Part shown: positions 3,701 through 17,681 of the stretch, piece after piece
How positions within the stretch are numbered: the stretch's first letter is position 1
How the letters are laid out: each line of letters opens with the position of its first letter
Virus record (IMG/VR): IMGVR_UViG_3300041403_000661
Span: 1 to 21,373 of that record
DNA from: a virus
Reading direction: 5' to 3' (one strand)
DNA: 21,373 nucleotides
Notes under the pieces: model-generated
What the model was told of the DNA's origin: nothing
The model's input: only the letters and a program-made list of their open reading frames with translations
Database searches by the model: none
Translations under genes and position numbers: made by a program

Positions 3701-3726
3701 AAAAGTCCCCGTTTTAGAGGACTTTT
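3701..3726. terminator. Bidirectional hairpin terminator after the HNH cassette
   Basis: An 8-bp stem AAAAGTCC (3701-3708) pairs with GGACTTTT (3719-3726). The plus strand continues in a T-run and the minus strand continues as CTTTTCTTTTAG. The stop codon of the minus-strand HNH gene (3714-3716) lies in the loop. It should end HNH transcription before the large terminase gene. Confidence 0.65.
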
Positions 3727-4451
3727 TTTCTCATCATCTTATACCACTCTTCAAATCCATCAGGGACTTTGTTTGACTTAATTATATTGTCTTTAGCCCA
3801 TAATGGTTGGAAGTTAGTGTAGTGATTGAAGATATACATATCTTCTTCTGTCTGTGCGAGTGATACAGGATAATAATGGTCGTAATGCCATTCTCCGTGA
3901 TTATCCCAAGTCATACCATCTACAAATTGATTTTCAATATGTTTTTTTAATGTCTTCCAATCACATTTTAAGTAATTATAAGTTTTAGATTTTTTACTCC
4001 AACCTTTTTTCTTAAAAGAAGAAATTAAAATGTTTCTAAAATTATGTGTTAATTTAAATATCTTATCCTTTTTTTTTCTTTGTTTTTGATATTGATTACT
4101 ATATTCGCACATCCTTTTTTTATTTTTTCTAAAATAAACTATTTTATTTTTTAATAATTCATCGCGATTATCATAATAATATTCTTTTTGTTTTTTTAAT
4201 AATTCATCGCGATTATCATAATAATATTCTTTTTGTTTTTTTATTATTTTCTCTTTATTATTATAATAATACTCTTTTTGTTTTTTTCTGGTTTCTAATT
4301 TTTTGTTTTTGTATGATTTCTTTCTATCTTCATTAATACATAATTTACAACGAGAAGTTAAAGAATTTTTTTGTTTATAAAAATATTCACTCGTCAAGGG
4401 TTTCTCCTCCCCACACTTACTACACTTCTTATATGTGATTTCTTGTTCCAT
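3714..4451 (-). CDS. HNH endonuclease with N-terminal zinc ribbon and Tyr/Lys repeats
   Basis: The 245-residue protein starts at ATG 4449-4451; a start 16 codons further up would lie across the promoter and is unlikely. The N-terminus is a CxxC...CxxC zinc ribbon (Cys10, 13, 35, 38). Residues 56-115 are about four 15-residue repeats of the type KKQKEYYYDNRDELL, two of them identical at DNA level. The C-terminal nuclease has WHYDHYYPVS (D191-H192), then NFQPL and N222, the usual HNH order. The gene has its own promoter (4456-4487) and is bounded by terminators on both sides. It looks like an independent mobile cassette inserted between the terminase genes. Confidence 0.85.
   Translation of the reverse strand: MEQEITYKKCSKCGEEKPLTSEYFYKQKNSLTSRCKLCINEDRKKSYKNKKLETRKKQKEYYYNNKEKIIKKQKEYYYDNRDELLKKQKEYYYDNRDELLKNKIVYFRKNKKRMCEYSNQYQKQRKKKDKIFKLTHNFRNILISSFKKKGWSKKSKTYNYLKCDWKTLKKHIENQFVDGMTWDNHGEWHYDHYYPVSLAQTEEDMYIFNHYTNFQPLWAKDNIIKSNKVPDGFEEWYKMMRKKVL
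4147..4243. repeat. 45-bp perfect tandem duplication in the HNH gene
   Basis: Bases 4147-4198 and 4192-4243 are identical with a period of 45 bp, that is 15 codons (KQKEYYYDNRDELLK twice). Diverged copies flank it in the protein. It is in frame, so it lengthens the Tyr/Lys linker without disrupting the gene. Confidence 0.9.
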
Positions 4452-4455
4452 ACCC

Positions 4456-4487
4456 CAAATATACAACAAATATTTTAATTCACAAAA
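4456..4487 (-). promoter_or_regulatory. Bacteroidota-type promoter of the HNH gene
   Basis: On the minus strand, TTTTG (4487-4483) is followed by a 19-nt spacer and TATATTTG (4463-4456), an exact TAnnTTTG -7 element. The ATG begins 4 nt later, at 4451. Transcription would therefore start at or within a few bases of the start codon, giving a leaderless or nearly leaderless message. Confidence 0.7.
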
Positions 4488-4489
4488 TA

Positions 4490-4519
4490 AATCCCCCAAC
4501 CTCGTTAGGTCAGGGGATT
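4490..4519 (-). terminator. Rho-independent terminator after the small terminase gene
   Basis: On the minus strand AATCCCC pairs with GGGGATT, with a second short helix ACC/GGT inside and a TAACGA-type loop, followed by TTATTTTG. It lies about 65 bases past the stop of the small terminase gene and directly before the HNH promoter. The stretch 4520-4583 holds only AT-rich leader and one GATATTTATT motif. Confidence 0.7.
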
Positions 4520-6099: not shown

Positions 6100-6498
6100 T
6101 CAAATCATTTTGTTTTTAATCATACCCCAATTCATTTTTGATTTTAAGTTTCTTACATCAAGAAACTTTTTTGATATATCTGCGAAATCGTTTGCGTGAT
6201 GTTTATAAGCCATTTGATATAACATAGTTGCGGTAAAATCTATTGGATTAAGTTTTTCCCTTATTTCAACTTTATCTCCTAATATACTTCCTTTGTAGTA
6301 AATGGAATATATTTCATTAAGAAATGTTTTCCACTCACTCTTTGGTATAATAACAGATACTAAATTACCAACTAAATAATGGTTATTATCTTCATCTATG
6401 TAGTTTATTATATAATCAGGATTAAATAATGTTTCTTCATCTATAATCAACTTTGGTGTGATTATATTAGTTTCTAATACTCTGTTTAATTCGTCCAT
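6100..6498 (-). CDS. Hypothetical protein, 132 residues
   Basis: The protein starts at ATG 6496-6498 after an AT-rich 17-base gap from the initiator gene. It is a mixed alpha/beta soluble protein: the N-terminus is LNRVLETNIITPKLIIDEE, then a beta hairpin (NNHYLVGNLVSVIIP), and a helical C-terminal half with TATMLYQMAYKHHANDFAD. The two His and the acidic residues there do not form a known metal motif. Being next in the operon after the replication initiator suggests a replication or early role, but the family is not recognised. Confidence 0.5.
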   Translation of the reverse strand: MDELNRVLETNIITPKLIIDEETLFNPDYIINYIDEDNNHYLVGNLVSVIIPKSEWKTFLNEIYSIYYKGSILGDKVEIREKLNPIDFTATMLYQMAYKHHANDFADISKKFLDVRNLKSKMNWGMIKNKMI

Positions 6499-6515: not shown

Positions 6516-7289
6516 TTATTTTAATACTCCAATATTACGAAGGAAATCTTCGTTTTCCAAAGTTTCTTTGGATTTAGTTTTACCATCTATAACTTGTAAT
6601 CCTTCGTATTTATTTCTCTTTGGTTTCATTTTAGTCCAAGGCTCTTCCCTGAAGTAATTACCTATCTGTTTGATATATTGATGTTCTGTATTCTTAATAT
6701 AAACCTTGAGGTGTCTAAACACTTTCTGTTTATCCTCTTGAGTTAATGTATTCCATTTTGATATTGCTGATATTTCATCATTCAATTTATCCTTTGGATA
6801 TAATCTAACTAACTTCTCCCATCCTCCTTCATCGTGAGTGAGGGAGGAACTGGTGGCCGACAACTCTTCAAGAGTTGTCCCACCTTCCTCCTCACTCGTT
6901 GTTGTTTTTATTTTATTAATTACTTTCTTTGTGCTGTTGATTTCAACATCACTAGTCGTGTTGATTTCAACATCACTAGTCAGGCGATAGTTGAATAAAT
7001 CTAACAAAACCCCCTCAACGATGGTATAATAGTTTTTAGCAGGATTACCTTTTTTCTCAACTAATAATATTCCTTTATCTTGTAAAACTTTCATAGATTT
7101 TCTCCACTGATGGTCTGTTATACCTGTTTCTTTCATTATCCTTTCTTTTTGTTGATAGAATGGTTGGTCTAACATATCAGCACAATCTATAAGATGTGTT
7201 AATAACAAACTAGTTTCTATCCCAAGATTTGATGTAAGTTGCTTATTGATTATCCAATAAGAAGATTGACTTAATAGTTTTTTTAACAT
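6516..7289 (-). CDS. Replication initiator / DnaD-like winged-helix protein
   Basis: The 257-residue protein starts at ATG 7287-7289 in a TAATG overlap with the small regulator gene. Residues 1-100 form a winged helix (ETSLLLTHLIDCADML, ITDHQWRKSMKVLQDKGIL, then a beta wing NYYTIV), as in phage replisome organisers. Residues 101-155 are a low-complexity linker with a repeated TSDVEIN and a Glu/Gly/Ser/Thr stretch. Residues 156-257 are a small helical domain (WNTLTQEDKQKVFRHLKVYI). The linker is encoded by DNA with two direct repeats and a large hairpin, recalling the origin inside lambda O. No helicase or primase motif is present. The exact family is not certain. Confidence 0.65.
   Translation of the reverse strand: MLKKLLSQSSYWIINKQLTSNLGIETSLLLTHLIDCADMLDQPFYQQKERIMKETGITDHQWRKSMKVLQDKGILLVEKKGNPAKNYYTIVEGVLLDLFNYRLTSDVEINTTSDVEINSTKKVINKIKTTTSEEEGGTTLEELSATSSSLTHDEGGWEKLVRLYPKDKLNDEISAISKWNTLTQEDKQKVFRHLKVYIKNTEHQYIKQIGNYFREEPWTKMKPKRNKYEGLQVIDGKTKSKETLENEDFLRNIGVLK
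6836..6897. repeat. Large imperfect inverted repeat inside the initiator gene
   Basis: The 62-base structure has three paired blocks. The first is GAGTGAG(G)GAGGAA (6836-6849) with TTCCTCCTCACTC (6885-6897), a single-base bulge. The second is GGTGG (6852-6856) with CCACC (6880-6884). The third is a perfect 10-bp arm GACAACTCTT (6859-6868) with AAGAGTTGTC (6870-6879) around one central base. About 28 base pairs can form, far more than codon choice alone would need. It lies in the linker-coding part of the gene, next to an AT-rich stretch and two direct repeats. Confidence 0.85.
6898..6981. other. Putative replication origin: AT-rich stretch plus iterons
   Basis: Two copies of a 22-base repeat (6936-6957 and 6960-6981) lie 24 bases apart. 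Each begins with the palindrome GTTGATTTCAAC and ends with ACTAGTC. On their left is an AT-rich run (6901-6930) and then the large hairpin at 6836-6897. Iterons, an easily melted stretch and a hairpin inside an initiator gene are the usual parts of a phage origin. Two iterons are fewer than in lambda (four). This call is an inference from layout. Confidence 0.5.
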
Positions 7290-7432
7290 TACTTTTGATT
7301 ATTAATATGTTCCATAATTAGTTTATCAAGGGTAAATCCCATCTTTAACCCATTATTTTTACAATAGGTTTTAAAATCACTCAATACATTTGGTGATACA
7401 TAAATCGGTTTTCTTTCTTTCCAATCGCTCAT
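7289..7432 (-). CDS. Ribbon-helix-helix-like DNA-binding protein, 47 residues
   Basis: This small gene starts at ATG 7430-7432 and ends in a TAATG overlap with the initiator gene. The protein has a short strand (KPIYVSPN), a first helix (VLSDFKTYCKNNGL), a turn KMG, and a second helix (FTLDKLIMEHIN). This strand-helix-helix form with the I-Y-V-S-P start is typical of small ribbon-helix-helix repressors. These bind operators as dimers. It is the first gene of the minus-strand early unit, and a perfect 13-base palindrome lies about 55 bases upstream in the divergent promoter region. It is a good candidate for autoregulation and control of the plus-strand genes. Confidence 0.7.
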   Translation of the reverse strand: MSDWKERKPIYVSPNVLSDFKTYCKNNGLKMGFTLDKLIMEHINNQK

Positions 7433-7499: not shown

Positions 7500-7525
7500 A
7501 ACTTTTTTTTATTCAACTATATTTA
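7495..7525 (+). promoter_or_regulatory. Promoter for the plus-strand zinc-ribbon gene unit
   Basis: TTTG (7495-7498), a 19-nt spacer and TATATTTA (7518-7525) differ from the Bacteroidota consensus only at the last base of the -7 box. A second ATATTTAT lies at 7552-7559, 4 nt before the chosen start codon. Confidence 0.55.
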
Positions 7526-7563
7526 TGATTATGGTAATTTTATCATATCTAATATTTATTATT

Positions 7564-7986
7564 ATGGCAAGACCTTTTGAAACAAAGAAAAGAATAATGG
7601 GAGAGAACGGACTATGGTATTACAGATGTGTAAAATGTAATACCTACAAACCTGAAACAGATATGGGTAAGAACTCTTCCAAGTCATTTAAGATTGATGG
7701 GTATTGTCTTGAATGTAAAAAGAAAAACAGAAGTAGTAAGAAGAGAAGTATTATGACCCAAAAGAATAAAGAGTATGGAACATCTTGGGTTGAACCTACT
7801 GGTCGTCATTTAAATCTAAAATATCATAAACTTCAAGATGATAGAGAAATGGAACAATACCTTATCAGAATGGGATATGATTTGGAACAACCAATATGGG
7901 AACAATTTGGAAAACGAGTAGAGGACAGATACGGGGTTAAATTGGAGTTTGATGATATACCATACTACGAAAGGGAAGATAATTAA
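7564..7986 (+). CDS. Zinc-ribbon protein of unknown function
   Basis: The 140-residue protein starts at ATG 7564. Upstream in-frame ATGs at 7525 and 7531 overlap or adjoin the promoter and would add an AT-rich hydrophobic leader, so they are less likely. Residues 19-49 hold a zinc ribbon: CVKC, then about 24 residues rich in Lys/Ser, then CLEC. A basic run (KKKNRSSKKRS) follows. The acidic C-terminal half is helical (REMEQYLIRMGYDLEQPIWEQFG). The Cys4 ribbon resembles the N-terminal domain of HNH endonucleases, but no H-N-H residues follow. It leads an early unit and may bind DNA or a host protein. Confidence 0.7.
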   Translation: MARPFETKKRIMGENGLWYYRCVKCNTYKPETDMGKNSSKSFKIDGYCLECKKKNRSSKKRSIMTQKNKEYGTSWVEPTGRHLNLKYHKLQDDREMEQYLIRMGYDLEQPIWEQFGKRVEDRYGVKLEFDDIPYYEREDN

Positions 7987-12659: not shown

Positions 12660-13319
12660 TTAATAACTATATGTGATTATGTTTTCATAAATTGATGGAG
12701 AAGGGTTATTATTATTGTATGTTCCCGCACATAAATGATATATACCATCAGTTAAACATTCATTAGATATATCAGCCCATTCACTATCATAAATACCTGT
12801 ATTAGGTGATGTTGCTTCTCCATCAGTCCATCCAGAAGAAGTTTTGCTTGTTGCGTTAATTAATTGAAATCTTACTCTATTATTACTTGGGTCAAAAGTT
12901 ATAACCATAATAATATTATCAGGATTAGTGTTTTTTGTATATACCGCATAATTTTTACCATTAGGTGCTGTTCCTGTTCTATAATTTGATGTATAAGGTT
13001 GTAAATAACCAATACCATAATAACTATAATCACCAGTCCAAGTTGAACTCCATGCCGATGCTCCTGATAAGTTCATATTTGGATAAATACCTGTTGGAGT
13101 AGCAGATGGAGTTGGAGTAATTGAAGGAGTAATAGTAGTAGTTGGAGTAATTGAAGGAGTAATAGTAGTAGTAGGAGTAATAGTAATAGTAGGGGTATTA
13201 GTTGGCGTAGGAGTAATAGTTGGGGTTTGTGATGGTGAGGGACTTGGTTCTGGTATTACCTCAATATCCCAATAAGGTCTATTTAAACTATAATATTTTA
13301 CTCTGTTATATTTTGGCAT
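12660..13319 (-). CDS. Fibre / decoration protein with Pro/Thr/Ser linker
   Basis: The 219-residue protein starts at ATG 13317-13319. The first 20 residues (MPKYNRVKYYSLNRPYWDIE) resemble those of the next gene upstream and probably anchor it to the virion. Residues 22-78 are a Pro/Thr/Ser/Ile linker (TPTITPTPTNTPTI type) built from 30-bp DNA repeats. The rest is a beta domain (SGASAWSSTWTGDYSYYGIG, then AVYTKNTNPDNIIMVITFDP). This domain looks like a carbohydrate-binding or Ig-like exposed head. The gene is probably variable between related phages. No catalytic residues are seen. Confidence 0.6.
   Translation of the reverse strand: MPKYNRVKYYSLNRPYWDIEVIPEPSPSPSQTPTITPTPTNTPTITITPTTTITPSITPTTTITPSITPTPSATPTGIYPNMNLSGASAWSSTWTGDYSYYGIGYLQPYTSNYRTGTAPNGKNYAVYTKNTNPDNIIMVITFDPSNNRVRFQLINATSKTSSGWTDGEATSPNTGIYDSEWADISNECLTDGIYHLCAGTYNNNNPSPSIYENIITYSY
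13111..13170. repeat. 30-bp perfect tandem repeat in a fibre linker
   Basis: Bases 13111-13140 and 13141-13170 are identical 30-bp units (each encoding ten residues of the TTTITPSITP type). They sit in a longer Pro/Thr low-complexity stretch (13090-13250) that resembles stretches at 13540-13750, 16680-16765 and 16860-16935. Confidence 0.9.
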
Positions 13320-13330
13320 ATCTAATTATT

Positions 13331-14221
13331 TTATGTAGGACAAGCACCCAATAATGTTATTGTATAATCAGTTGAACCGAATACTCTAATTGGTGTAGAA
13401 CAAGAACACTGGGTAGTTATTGTATCTATTGGCACAATCAATATTTCAGTATTTAATGTATCACAATCCACATACTCCACAGATAAAGTTTGACCTTTAT
13501 CGTTATTATCTATACTATAATACTTACAATAACAAGGGTCGGTTGGACTTGGTGTAGGAGTTGCCGTTGGAGTGGCGGATGCTTTTGGTGAAGTAGTAGG
13601 AGTAATCGTAGGTGTAATTGAAGGTGTATTAGTTATGGTAGGAGTTGCGGTAGGTGTTGGACTTTTACTCGGTGGAGGTGTTGAAGTGATAGATGGAGTA
13701 ATAGAAGGGGTATTACTAATAGTTGGAGTGATAGAAGGGGTAGGACTATCACATACTTTATTATAAGTAATGTATCCCTCAAGGTCTGCTTCATCAGCAT
13801 AAATAACATTTTTACAAGTTATGGTTGAAGGTGAAGGATAAGCAACAAGGTCATATTTAGTGTTTATTGTCTCACCACAATCTAAAGTTCCTGAAAGTAA
13901 TTCAAAGAATTGGAAATCACCACTACTATTAAACGACCATACACCGGTGCTTAATGAAGCCGTTATACCTGTATAAATAGCATAATTTGAACCACAAGTA
14001 ATAGTGCCAGTCCAATTACTCGGAGTAATTGGAGTTAAATCTATTATTCCCTTTAATGATGTTTCATAATAAGTTCCATTTATAAAACTTAAACCATTTG
14101 TGGCATAGAAACAAAATAAATCATAAATAGAACAAGGATTAAAATAGGTTTTAATATCCCAATAGGGCACATCAAAACCATTTAACTTTTGATACTGAAC
14201 CCTTTTATATATTGGCGCCAT
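13331..14221 (-). CDS. Two-domain fibre / decoration protein with Pro/Thr linker
   Basis: The 296-residue protein is read from ATG 14219-14221 (17-nt overlap with the upstream gene); a TTG three bases up is possible but less likely. The N-terminus ([14 protein letters not shown] and PYWDI) matches the next fibre's anchor. Residues about 25-160 form a Cys-containing beta domain ([29 protein letters not shown]). A Pro/Thr/Ser linker covers about 162-230 ([14 protein letters not shown] type). The last 65 residues are a second Cys-rich domain ([32 protein letters not shown]). The C-terminal domain has the look of a small disulfide or metal-bound virion domain seen in other Pro/Thr fibre proteins. 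Confidence 0.6.
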
Positions 14222-15939: not shown

Positions 15940-17064
15940 TTAATATGTATTTCTTCCAAGTGTTGTTTGGAATGTGTTTATGATTGTTGATAATGTGGAT
16001 ACTTCACTATCAGTTAGATATGTTGAATATACAACAAAGTTAAATGTTCTTGGTGAATAAGCAGAACTAGGTCCACGCATAATTTGTGAGTTGGATGATA
16101 TATAATCATTATCATTCGTGGTTGAATTAATTAAAGTAGTTGAACCATTCTTAATCAACTTAACAACACCACCAGTTGAACCAGTTAAAGTAGAAATATA
16201 AAGTCCTGTCCCATCTGTATTTGTACCAGTAATAAATGATGAATATCTAACATATGCTAAATCATTAATATATCTTGTTATTAAAGCATTATCGTCTGTT
16301 CCTGTTGATTGTAATTCATACGAAACATCCGCAGAACCATCACCAATAACATAAACCCCTTGTGATATATCACCTAAATTAGAAAAAATCGTTCTCCCTA
16401 ATGAATGAACTCCATAACCATTTGTGTTATTACCAGTTGAACCGCTTATATCGTGAGACACTCCACCCAACCAACTAATATCATAAGTGGTTCCTAATGT
16501 TCTGTTGTGATATAATGCGTGTGAAGCAGCAGTTCCTCCAACAAACGGATAGAAGTGTAATTTACTATAAAGACCATTTGACTTAAGGTCTGTGAATAAT
16601 GTATCAACCGCTGATGTTATGGTGGCATCTATCGTTCCCCCTGAAGCGACAACATCGTCAAGATATGCTTGAGCGTCGGGGTCTAAAGGTATAGAACTTG
16701 GAGTTGGAGTTATAGTAGGAGTAATACTCGGAGTTGGAGTTATACTACTTGTGGGAGTTGGTGTCGGCGATGGTTCAATACAAGGGAAGTGGTCTATATA
16801 ATCACCATTTTGTGCGATTAGAATATCTCCATTCTGTGCTTCAATATGGCAGGTTTCAGGTAAAGTTGGACTTGGTGTAGGACTTAAGGTTGGACTTGGA
16901 GTTGGGGTAATTGATGGTGATGGAATTGGGGTTTCTTCGGTCTCACCACCAACAAAAGATGCGACCCACGCAGTTTTTGGTCTCCCATTAACAGGGACAC
17001 CTTTTCTATTTAAAAATGGTTTAAGTCCAGCGGGGACATATCTTCTTCCGTTCCAATTTATCAT
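15940..17064 (-). CDS. Fibre protein with Pro/Thr linkers and a C-terminal ConA/LamG-like domain
   Basis: The 374-residue protein starts at ATG 17062-17064. It has an N-terminal anchor (INWNGRRYVPAGLKPFLNRK) and a first Pro/Ser/Thr linker (47-68). A short insert holds two copies of an A-Q-N-G-D motif (IEAQNGDILIAQNGDYIDHF), and a second linker covers 98-127. The C-terminal 245 residues (DAQAYLDDVVASGGTIDATI then LYSKLHFYPFVGGTAASHAL) form a beta-sandwich like the LamG/ConA domains of phage fibres. Ser/Asn/Gly-rich loops continue to the end. It probably binds a cell-surface sugar. It opens the fibre transcript after a terminator at 17088-17127. Confidence 0.65.
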   Translation of the reverse strand: MINWNGRRYVPAGLKPFLNRKGVPVNGRPKTAWVASFVGGETEETPIPSPSITPTPSPTLSPTPSPTLPETCHIEAQNGDILIAQNGDYIDHFPCIEPSPTPTPTSSITPTPSITPTITPTPSSIPLDPDAQAYLDDVVASGGTIDATITSAVDTLFTDLKSNGLYSKLHFYPFVGGTAASHALYHNRTLGTTYDISWLGGVSHDISGSTGNNTNGYGVHSLGRTIFSNLGDISQGVYVIGDGSADVSYELQSTGTDDNALITRYINDLAYVRYSSFITGTNTDGTGLYISTLTGSTGGVVKLIKNGSTTLINSTTNDNDYISSNSQIMRGPSSAYSPRTFNFVVYSTYLTDSEVSTLSTIINTFQTTLGRNTY

Positions 17065-17087: not shown

Positions 17088-17127
17088 AAAGGGGCGAGGA
17101 GGGGTCTAACCCTCACTCACCCCCTTA
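17088..17127 (-). terminator. Hairpin terminator after the capsid/tail-tube genes
   Basis: On the minus strand an outer stem AAGGGG/CCCCTT encloses an inner GAGGG/CCCTC stem, and TTTATTAAAAA follows. It lies 10 bases after the stop at 17136 and before the first fibre gene. The stem is interrupted, so partial termination is likely. Confidence 0.55.
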
Positions 17128-17135
17128 AAGTTTAA

Positions 17136-17681
17136 TTAAACTGCGTCAAAAGTAATACCACTAAAGACAGCGTCAATAGTTGTAGCAACTTCTACTTCTC
17201 TCGTAGCAGCAGGTTCTCCACCTGTTGCGGTCATAGTTGAACCATTAGCATCTGTGAAGGCCGCACCTGTAAAGACACTACCATCAGTAATAGTCAAACC
17301 ATTAACTTCACCAGGGAACCAGTATCTTCCATTATTGTCTTCAACAACAACAAAGAACTCTGGCTGCTTGGTTAATTCATACCATACTTTTCTCAAAGCA
17401 TTATCAAACTTGGTTAAGTTCAAAGTTAATGAAGGCTGATAAACAACACTATTAGATGTAGCATTAACAGAGATTGTTTCTTCAAATGAAGATGAACCTT
17501 TAACCAACTCAAACTTATACATTACACCAGAACCACTGATTGCTGTGATTTGGTCGTCAGCATCAGTAGTGATACTACTGATTGTGTTTCCTGAACCACC
17601 CAAGATATAGACACTCTTAATACCACCGATGGCAGCGTCTCTACATCCTAAAGTAAGTCCGTTTTCTATATAACAACTCAT
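17136..17681 (-). CDS. Tail tube-like virion protein
   Basis: The 181-residue protein starts at ATG 17679-17681. It is beta-rich: SVYILGGSGNTISSI, MYKFELVKGSSSFEETISVN, then FFVVVEDNNGRYWFPGEVNG, and the Gly/Ala/Thr-rich stretch TGAAFTDANGSTMTATGGEP. The final strand ends ATTIDAVFSGITFDAV. 'G-R-Y-W-F-P-G-E ... G-x-A-F-x-D-A-N-G ... T-G-G-E-P' is a pattern I associate with tail tube or major tail proteins of Bacteroidota phages. Its place right after the major capsid gene is unusual for tube genes, and a capsid-stabilising protein remains an alternative. No Cys-rich or coiled-coil segments are seen beyond two N-terminal Cys. Confidence 0.45.
   Translation of the reverse strand: MSCYIENGLTLGCRDAAIGGIKSVYILGGSGNTISSITTDADDQITAISGSGVMYKFELVKGSSSFEETISVNATSNSVVYQPSLTLNLTKFDNALRKVWYELTKQPEFFVVVEDNNGRYWFPGEVNGLTITDGSVFTGAAFTDANGSTMTATGGEPAATREVEVATTIDAVFSGITFDAV

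What the first reader, a model, noticed from the sequence alone, without database searches (positions are those of the whole stretch)
6936..6981. Iteron-like direct repeats inside the replication initiator gene
Seen: two 22-base identical repeats at a 24-base period, each with the palindrome GTTGATTTCAAC and the palindrome ACTAGT. They encode a repeated TSDVEIN in the protein linker, next to an AT-rich run. Known: lambda and relatives place their origin as iterons inside the initiator gene O. Inference: this is the phage origin, bound by the protein encoded around it. The host group has few described phage origins of this kind.
Basis: partly seen in the sequence, partly recalled or inferred. 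Interest (0 to 1): 0.7.

Follow-up and report, generated by a model that had tools for sequence, protein, structure and literature searches.

The report
Phage replication origin inside its starter gene
A small phage, probably of Bacteroidota, appears to carry its DNA replication start site inside the gene for the protein that starts replication: two repeated binding sites, an A-rich stretch, and an unusually long hairpin that evolution has preserved by matching changes on both arms.

Summary
The repeats are real: 23 identical bases at a 24-base period (6935-6957, 6959-6981) in the linker of a PHROG-270 replication initiator gene (6516-7289, minus strand). All relatives found (58-100% identity) carry tandem repeats at the same place, but with different sequences. 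Window and L004 use GTTGA-AA-TCAAC, L005 GATCA-AA-TGATC, L006 GGGTGA-ATA-TCACCC, L007 GCAC-AAA-GTGC. L006's period is 25, which breaks the reading frame, so selection acts on DNA. A 32-40-base spacer, A-rich on the coding strand, follows. The order iterons, A-rich spacer, inverted repeat is that of lambda ori, and lambda's own relatives vary in a similar way. Direct repeats with inverted arms around a poly-A centre inside the rep gene are also typical of RepA_N plasmid origins. Verdict: very probably the phage origin, lambda-like in architecture but not in gene homology, with an unusually elaborate hairpin that co-occurs with the initiator's C-terminal domain and a new 132-aa partner gene. Function is inferred; nothing was measured.

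The parts
6516..7289 (-). replication initiator gene, 257 aa (PHROG 270)
   Evidence: ORF; phrog_270 'replication initiation protein' E=4.3e-12, phrog_428 E=1.1e-6, O-like phrog_9773 E=4e-4
7020..7244 (-). N-terminal winged-helix domain (residues 16-90), putative iteron binder; recognition helix residues 59-71 = 7077-7115
   Evidence: AlphaFold model, pLDDT mostly 57-83 in this part; Foldseek matches incl. RepA_N NTDs 5kbj, 4pt7, 4pql, 4ro3 and DnaD 2v79 at E 0.02-0.07, weak
6959..6981 (-). iteron 1 (core TGTTGAAATCAACA 6959-6972)
6935..6957 (-). iteron 2 (core 6935-6948)
6903..6934 (-). A-rich spacer (66% A on the coding strand), putative DNA unwinding element
   Evidence: 97th-99th percentile of A content within the gene in all five relatives; lambda's 39-nt spacer likewise
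6836..6897 (-). long hairpin / inverted repeat, invariant GGTGG/CCACC core with two 2-nt bulges, covarying outer and inner stems
   Evidence: z=-7.2, nine doubly changed pairs in four sequences, 0/1000 protein-preserving recodings as stable, strongest fold in the window
6654..6821 (-). C-terminal helical domain of the initiator (residues 157-212), putative host/partner interaction
   Evidence: low-confidence model; conserved in L004-L006, different in L007
6100..6498 (-). 132-aa ORF directly downstream, in the place of lambda P; no known relatives
   Evidence: conserved in L004, L005, L006, not found in L007; no PHROG or phage match

Best explanation
This is the phage's theta-type replication origin, embedded in the linker of its initiator gene. 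Dimers of the initiator's N-terminal winged-helix domain bind the two semi-palindromic iterons. The stress melts the neighbouring A-rich spacer. The long hairpin beyond it, extruded as a cruciform or folded on the exposed strand, acts with the initiator's C-terminal domain and probably the 132-aa downstream protein to load the host helicase and primase, since no such gene was recognised in the 28-kb relative. Shown here: the anatomy, its conservation at nucleic-acid level, and the exchange of iteron sequences between relatives. Inferred from lambda and RepA_N systems: binding, melting and origin use. The hairpin's role in loading is the least certain step (I would give it about 0.4).
For: Tandem repeats at the same gene position in five distinct initiators with four different arm sequences, each rarer than 1% among synonymous shuffles. 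25-nt frame-breaking period in L006. Arms meet at an A-rich centre, as described for RepA_N iterons (PMC7145576). A-rich spacer in all. Hairpin with 9/25 pairs doubly compensated and 99% of cells paired, against 87.5% in column shuffles, 0/1000 recodings as stable; between window and L004 the hairpin codons change amino acids far more often than the rest (10/20 vs 26/237, p=6e-5), so the structure, not the peptide, is kept. Initiator family hits. Same order of parts in lambda and its relatives. Two iterons plus the AT-rich region suffice for lambda unwinding (PMC7466680). The linker encoded by the ori is dispensable in pSK41 Rep (PMC5703833).
Against: No experimental evidence in this phage group. 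Only four to five independent lineages were found. More distant initiators (Fpv5, PMBT5, Ld17, Ld25A; at most 35% identity) show no comparable in-gene repeats at 18-30 nt spacing, so the arrangement is not universal in the family. The spacer is not the least stable DNA in the gene. GC skew is uninformative. L007 has three iterons but no hairpin, so the hairpin is not needed by every such origin. The HTH model and fold matches are of low confidence.
Confidence: 0.8

Rival explanations
1. The repeats are an operator, not an origin: the initiator (or another phage regulator) binds them to repress or time its own transcription, and the real origin is elsewhere.
For: Semi-palindromic sites can be operators. 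The 13-nt inverted pair 6987-6999 / 7508-7520 links the gene to the divergent promoter region.
Against: The sites lie about 310 bases inside the gene, not at a promoter. No further iteron core lies near the divergent intergenic region. No other non-coding repeat array was seen in the window. It leaves the A-rich spacer and hairpin unexplained.
Confidence: 0.1
2. The hairpin is an RNA element of the initiator mRNA (RNase III site, translation pause or decay control) or an antisense transcription terminator, and merely lies next to the origin. This rival concerns the hairpin only and can hold together with an origin at the iterons.
For: It lies in transcribed DNA and folds equally well as RNA on either strand. 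The plus strand has a T-rich run after the stem. Covariation alone cannot tell DNA from RNA.
Against: The terminator scan does not list it. Lambda and ES18 also carry an inverted repeat immediately after the A-rich spacer. Two conserved 2-nt bulges and an invariant GGTGG core are more than a terminator needs. The only G-U pair says little about strand.
Confidence: 0.3
3. The repeats are a protein-level feature: a duplicated TSDVEIN motif in a disordered linker, with DNA identity left over from recent duplication.
For: In four of five initiators the period is 24, a multiple of three, and the peptide repeats too.
Against: L006 repeats at 25 nt, so its peptide does not repeat. The synonymous positions match beyond codon shuffles. 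Inverted symmetry is kept while the peptide changes. Window and L004 keep both copies at 86% protein identity.
Confidence: 0.04
4. Rolling-circle or nick-type origin with iterons and a stem-loop, as in CRESS-DNA viruses or pT181.
For: Iterons beside a stem-loop, inside a rep gene as the dso is in pT181 (PMC5703833).
Against: No HUH motif in any of the five initiators. The loop is not conserved in sequence. The rest of the genome is a tailed dsDNA phage.
Confidence: 0.02

Closest known systems
Bacteriophage lambda ori in gene O
   Same: Origin in the middle of the initiator gene; semi-palindromic iterons; 39-nt spacer A-rich on the coding strand; then an inverted repeat (39158-39181). Relatives swap iteron sequence but keep the layout; ES18, with another C-terminal part and a primase/helicase gene downstream, has a different inverted repeat.
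   Different: Two or three iterons instead of four, 24-25-nt period; initiator only distantly O-like; no recognisable P gene; hairpin about 25 bp with bulges instead of a 10-bp stem, and it evolves by compensatory change.
RepA_N plasmid origins (pSK41, pTZ2162) and PLE RepA
   Same: Origin in the centre of rep (pSK41); direct repeats whose inverted arms converge on a poly-A tract; N-terminal winged helix binds DNA (PMC5703833, PMC7145576). Fold search lists 5kbj, 4pt7, 4pql, 4ro3 and DnaD 2v79.
   Different: No PF06970 match by sequence; fold matches are weak. No comparable long hairpin is described in the passages read.
pPR9 Rep / HTH_36 (pfam13730) phage-type initiators
   Same: Phage-like HTH_36 N-terminus paired with a retained C-terminus; N-terminal domain and origin exchanged together (PMC5703833).
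   Different: HTH_36 hit is below the curated cut-off (16.2 vs 25 bits).
SPP1 oriL in gene 38
   Same: Direct repeats plus AT-rich unwinding element, repeats inside the initiator gene (PMC6316719).
   Different: SPP1 encodes its own loader and helicase; no such genes were recognised here.
RSF1010 ssiA / pAMbeta1 ssiA priming or primosome sites
   Same: Strand-specific site beside an origin that directs priming or primosome assembly; ssiA of RSF1010 is a hairpin (PMC4434180; PMC5703833).
   Different: Analogy only; no primase gene was recognised here and no sequence similarity was tested.

Membership tests
lambda-type intragenic ori | origin repeats inside the initiator gene, between DNA-binding and C-terminal parts | tested here: met
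lambda-type intragenic ori | iterons with hyphenated dyad symmetry | tested here: met
   but 2-3 copies, not 4
lambda-type intragenic ori | adjacent A+T-rich melting region | tested here: met
   composition only; melting not tested
lambda-type intragenic ori | inverted repeat on the far side of the A-rich region | tested here: met
   far longer than lambda's
lambda-type intragenic ori | downstream helicase loader homologous to P | tested here: not met
   132-aa ORF has no match
lambda-type intragenic ori | initiator binds iterons and unwinds DNA | not testable with these tools
   needs gel shift, footprinting and melting assays
RepA_N initiators | PF06970 RepA_N domain by sequence | tested here: not met
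   Pfam scan lists HTH_36 at E=0.009 below cut-off and no RepA_N
RepA_N initiators | RepA_N/DnaD-like winged-helix fold | tested here: inconclusive
   several RepA_N NTD structures among hits at E 0.02-0.07, mixed with other winged helices, on a low-confidence model
RepA_N initiators | direct repeats with inverted arms around a poly-A tract, in the centre of rep | tested here: met
   against PMC7145576 and PMC5703833
rolling-circle (HUH) origins | HUH endonuclease motif in the initiator | tested here: not met
known structured RNA families | Rfam match above gathering score | tested here: not met
   best 30.4 vs 50 bits

The most novel reading that the evidence does not exclude
The hairpin is a distinct kind of origin element: a structured single strand or cruciform that serves as the helicase/primase loading site for a phage that brings neither enzyme. 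It would be recognised by its invariant GGTGG core and bulges, and inherited as a module with the initiator's C-terminal domain and the 132-aa protein. Lambda's inverted repeat would be a small version of the same element.
Probability: 0.3. Interest if true: 0.75.

Novelty: new variant of a known kind. Interest (0 to 1): 0.52.

Why it matters
It extends the origin-inside-the-initiator design to a group of small, probably Bacteroidota phages for which I found no described origin in the papers searched. It shows two modules side by side: exchangeable iteron/DNA-binding pairs and a conserved hairpin/C-terminal/partner-gene unit. The covarying hairpin makes a neglected part of lambda-type origins, the inverted repeat beyond the A-rich region, testable by comparison and by compensatory mutants. 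The 132-aa protein is a concrete candidate for a new helicase-loading partner.

Tried and rejected
Synonymous-site conservation as main proof: only p=0.085, and the longest run of identical codons between window and L004 (20 codons) lies in the DNA-binding domain, so it is not specific. GC skew as origin mark: follows coding strand. AT-rich run as weakest duplex: not so in window, L004 and L006 by nearest-neighbour energy (it is the weakest in L007 and tied in L005). Hairpin-core scans of viral and genome collections (a first viral pattern had one N too many): only the same phages returned this long hairpin, other hits are unrelated. Relatives in plasmids and genomes: none. Rfam: nothing. 132-aa protein structure: confidence too low (pLDDT 53) to search. 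Protein-level repeat: rejected by L006. Rolling-circle origin: rejected by the lack of HUH.

Full report
Observation. The window holds two exact 23-nt repeats, 6935-6957 and 6959-6981, 24 bases apart, in the linker of a 257-aa minus-strand gene, 6516-7289. The protein matches PHROG 270 'replication initiation protein' at E=4.3e-12 and more weakly other initiator and O-like families. The terminase's nearest relatives include Flavobacterium, Bacteroides and Parabacteroides phages and the initiator's best known relatives include Flavobacterium psychrophilum phages at 32%, so a Bacteroidota host is likely but not shown.

Relatives. Viral contigs gave L002 and L003 (identical initiator), L004 (86%), L005 (69%), L006 (63%) and L007 (58% over the N-terminus). 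Further searches added only the same contigs. Every one has tandem repeats at the same place. L004 keeps the window's unit. L005 has GATCA-AA-TGATC, L006 GGGTGA-ATA-TCACCC, and L007 three copies around GCAC-AAA-GTGC. A CTAGTGA box between the arms is kept in window, L004, L005 and most L007 copies. Longest exact repeats at 18-30 nt spacing are matched in 0, 1, 2, 0 and 7 of 1000 synonymous-codon shuffles for window, L004, L005, L006 and L007. L006's period of 25 shifts the frame, so its peptide does not repeat while the DNA does. This is the clearest sign of selection on DNA. The start of the predicted recognition helix differs along with the arms (TDH in window and L004, SER in L005, TEY in L006, GER in L007), which fits co-evolution, but four types are too few to test.

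Hairpin. It is present in window, L004, L005 and L006. Of 25 pairs, 9 show changes on both sides that keep pairing, 99% of cells pair, and no shuffle or slid control comes near. GGTGG/CCACC and two 2-nt bulges on the 3' arm are kept in all four; outer and inner stems covary. No protein-preserving recoding among 1000 was as stable in any of the four. Between window and L004, 10 of 20 hairpin codons change the amino acid, against 26 of 237 elsewhere (p=6e-5). Rfam has nothing above threshold. Scans for the core in viral and genome collections found this long hairpin only in these phages.

Modules. L007 lacks the hairpin, the C-terminal domain of the others and the 132-aa downstream gene; the other four have all three. 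No helicase, loader or primase was recognised when reading the ORFs of at least 100 aa in the 28-kb and 25-kb relatives; those ORFs were not all scanned by profile, and neither contig is proven complete. The downstream gene sits where P sits in lambda.

Comparison. In the lambda record the order is four iterons, 39-nt A-rich spacer, inverted repeat ATTCGTCAGA-GAAT-TCTGGCGAAT. Distant lambdoid phages replace the iterons but keep the A-rich spacer, and related versions of the inverted repeat, some with weaker pairing, follow it. ES18, whose downstream genes include a primase/helicase instead of P, has another inverted repeat (TGTCCGAA-AGTG-TTCGGACG) in the same place. Thus in both groups iterons go with the N-terminus and the inverted repeat goes with the C-terminal side. 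RepA_N plasmids such as pSK41 likewise carry the origin in the middle of rep, and RepA_N iterons are direct repeats whose arms converge on a poly-A tract (PMC5703833, PMC7145576); SPP1 has oriL in gene 38 (PMC6316719). The N-terminal model finds RepA_N structures 5kbj, 4pt7, 4pql, 4ro3 and DnaD 2v79 among its matches, at weak E-values; the RepA_N Pfam model itself does not match.

Conclusion. Very probably the phage origin: initiator binding to iterons, melting of the A-rich spacer, and helicase loading helped by the hairpin and the C-terminal module. The first step rests on anatomy and comparison, the second on analogy, the third is a proposal. It works like lambda ori and shares its architecture, but it is not a lambda O/P module by homology, nor a RepA_N member by sequence.

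Noticed in passing
window 6100-6498: 132-aa protein family with no database relatives, directly downstream of this initiator type in all four phages that have the hairpin; candidate helicase-loading partner.
   Followed up: partly
window 7289-7432 (-): 47-aa ORF (MSDWKERKPIYVSPNVLSDF...) overlapping the initiator start as TAATG; might be a small DNA-binding regulator, not tested.
   Followed up: no
window 6987-6999 and 7508-7520: Perfect 13-nt inverted pair (ATAGTTGAATAAA) linking the DNA next to the iterons with the region just before the divergent gene at 7525.
   Followed up: no
window 13093-13769 and 16685-16930: Proline/threonine-rich ([10 protein letters not shown]) repeat arrays in three probable structural proteins; DNA repeats in 9-18 nt steps.
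   Followed up: no
window 4133-4287: 45-nt tandem repeats encoding KKQKEYYYDNRDELL in a probable zinc/HNH-type protein (3714-4499).
   Followed up: no
window 7525-7986; L005 371-715; L006 2682-2999 and 5067-5375: Recurrent small endonuclease VII/HNH-like cysteine proteins, one or more per phage, close to the initiator.
   Followed up: no
L055-L062 (lambdoid phages): Lambdoid origins keep an inverted-repeat segment right after the A-rich spacer while iterons are exchanged; ES18 with a primase/helicase gene has a different inverted repeat.
   Followed up: partly
window 17091-17163: Strong hairpin between genes (GGGGCGAGGAGGGGTC...), terminator-like on the minus strand with a T-rich tail.
   Followed up: no
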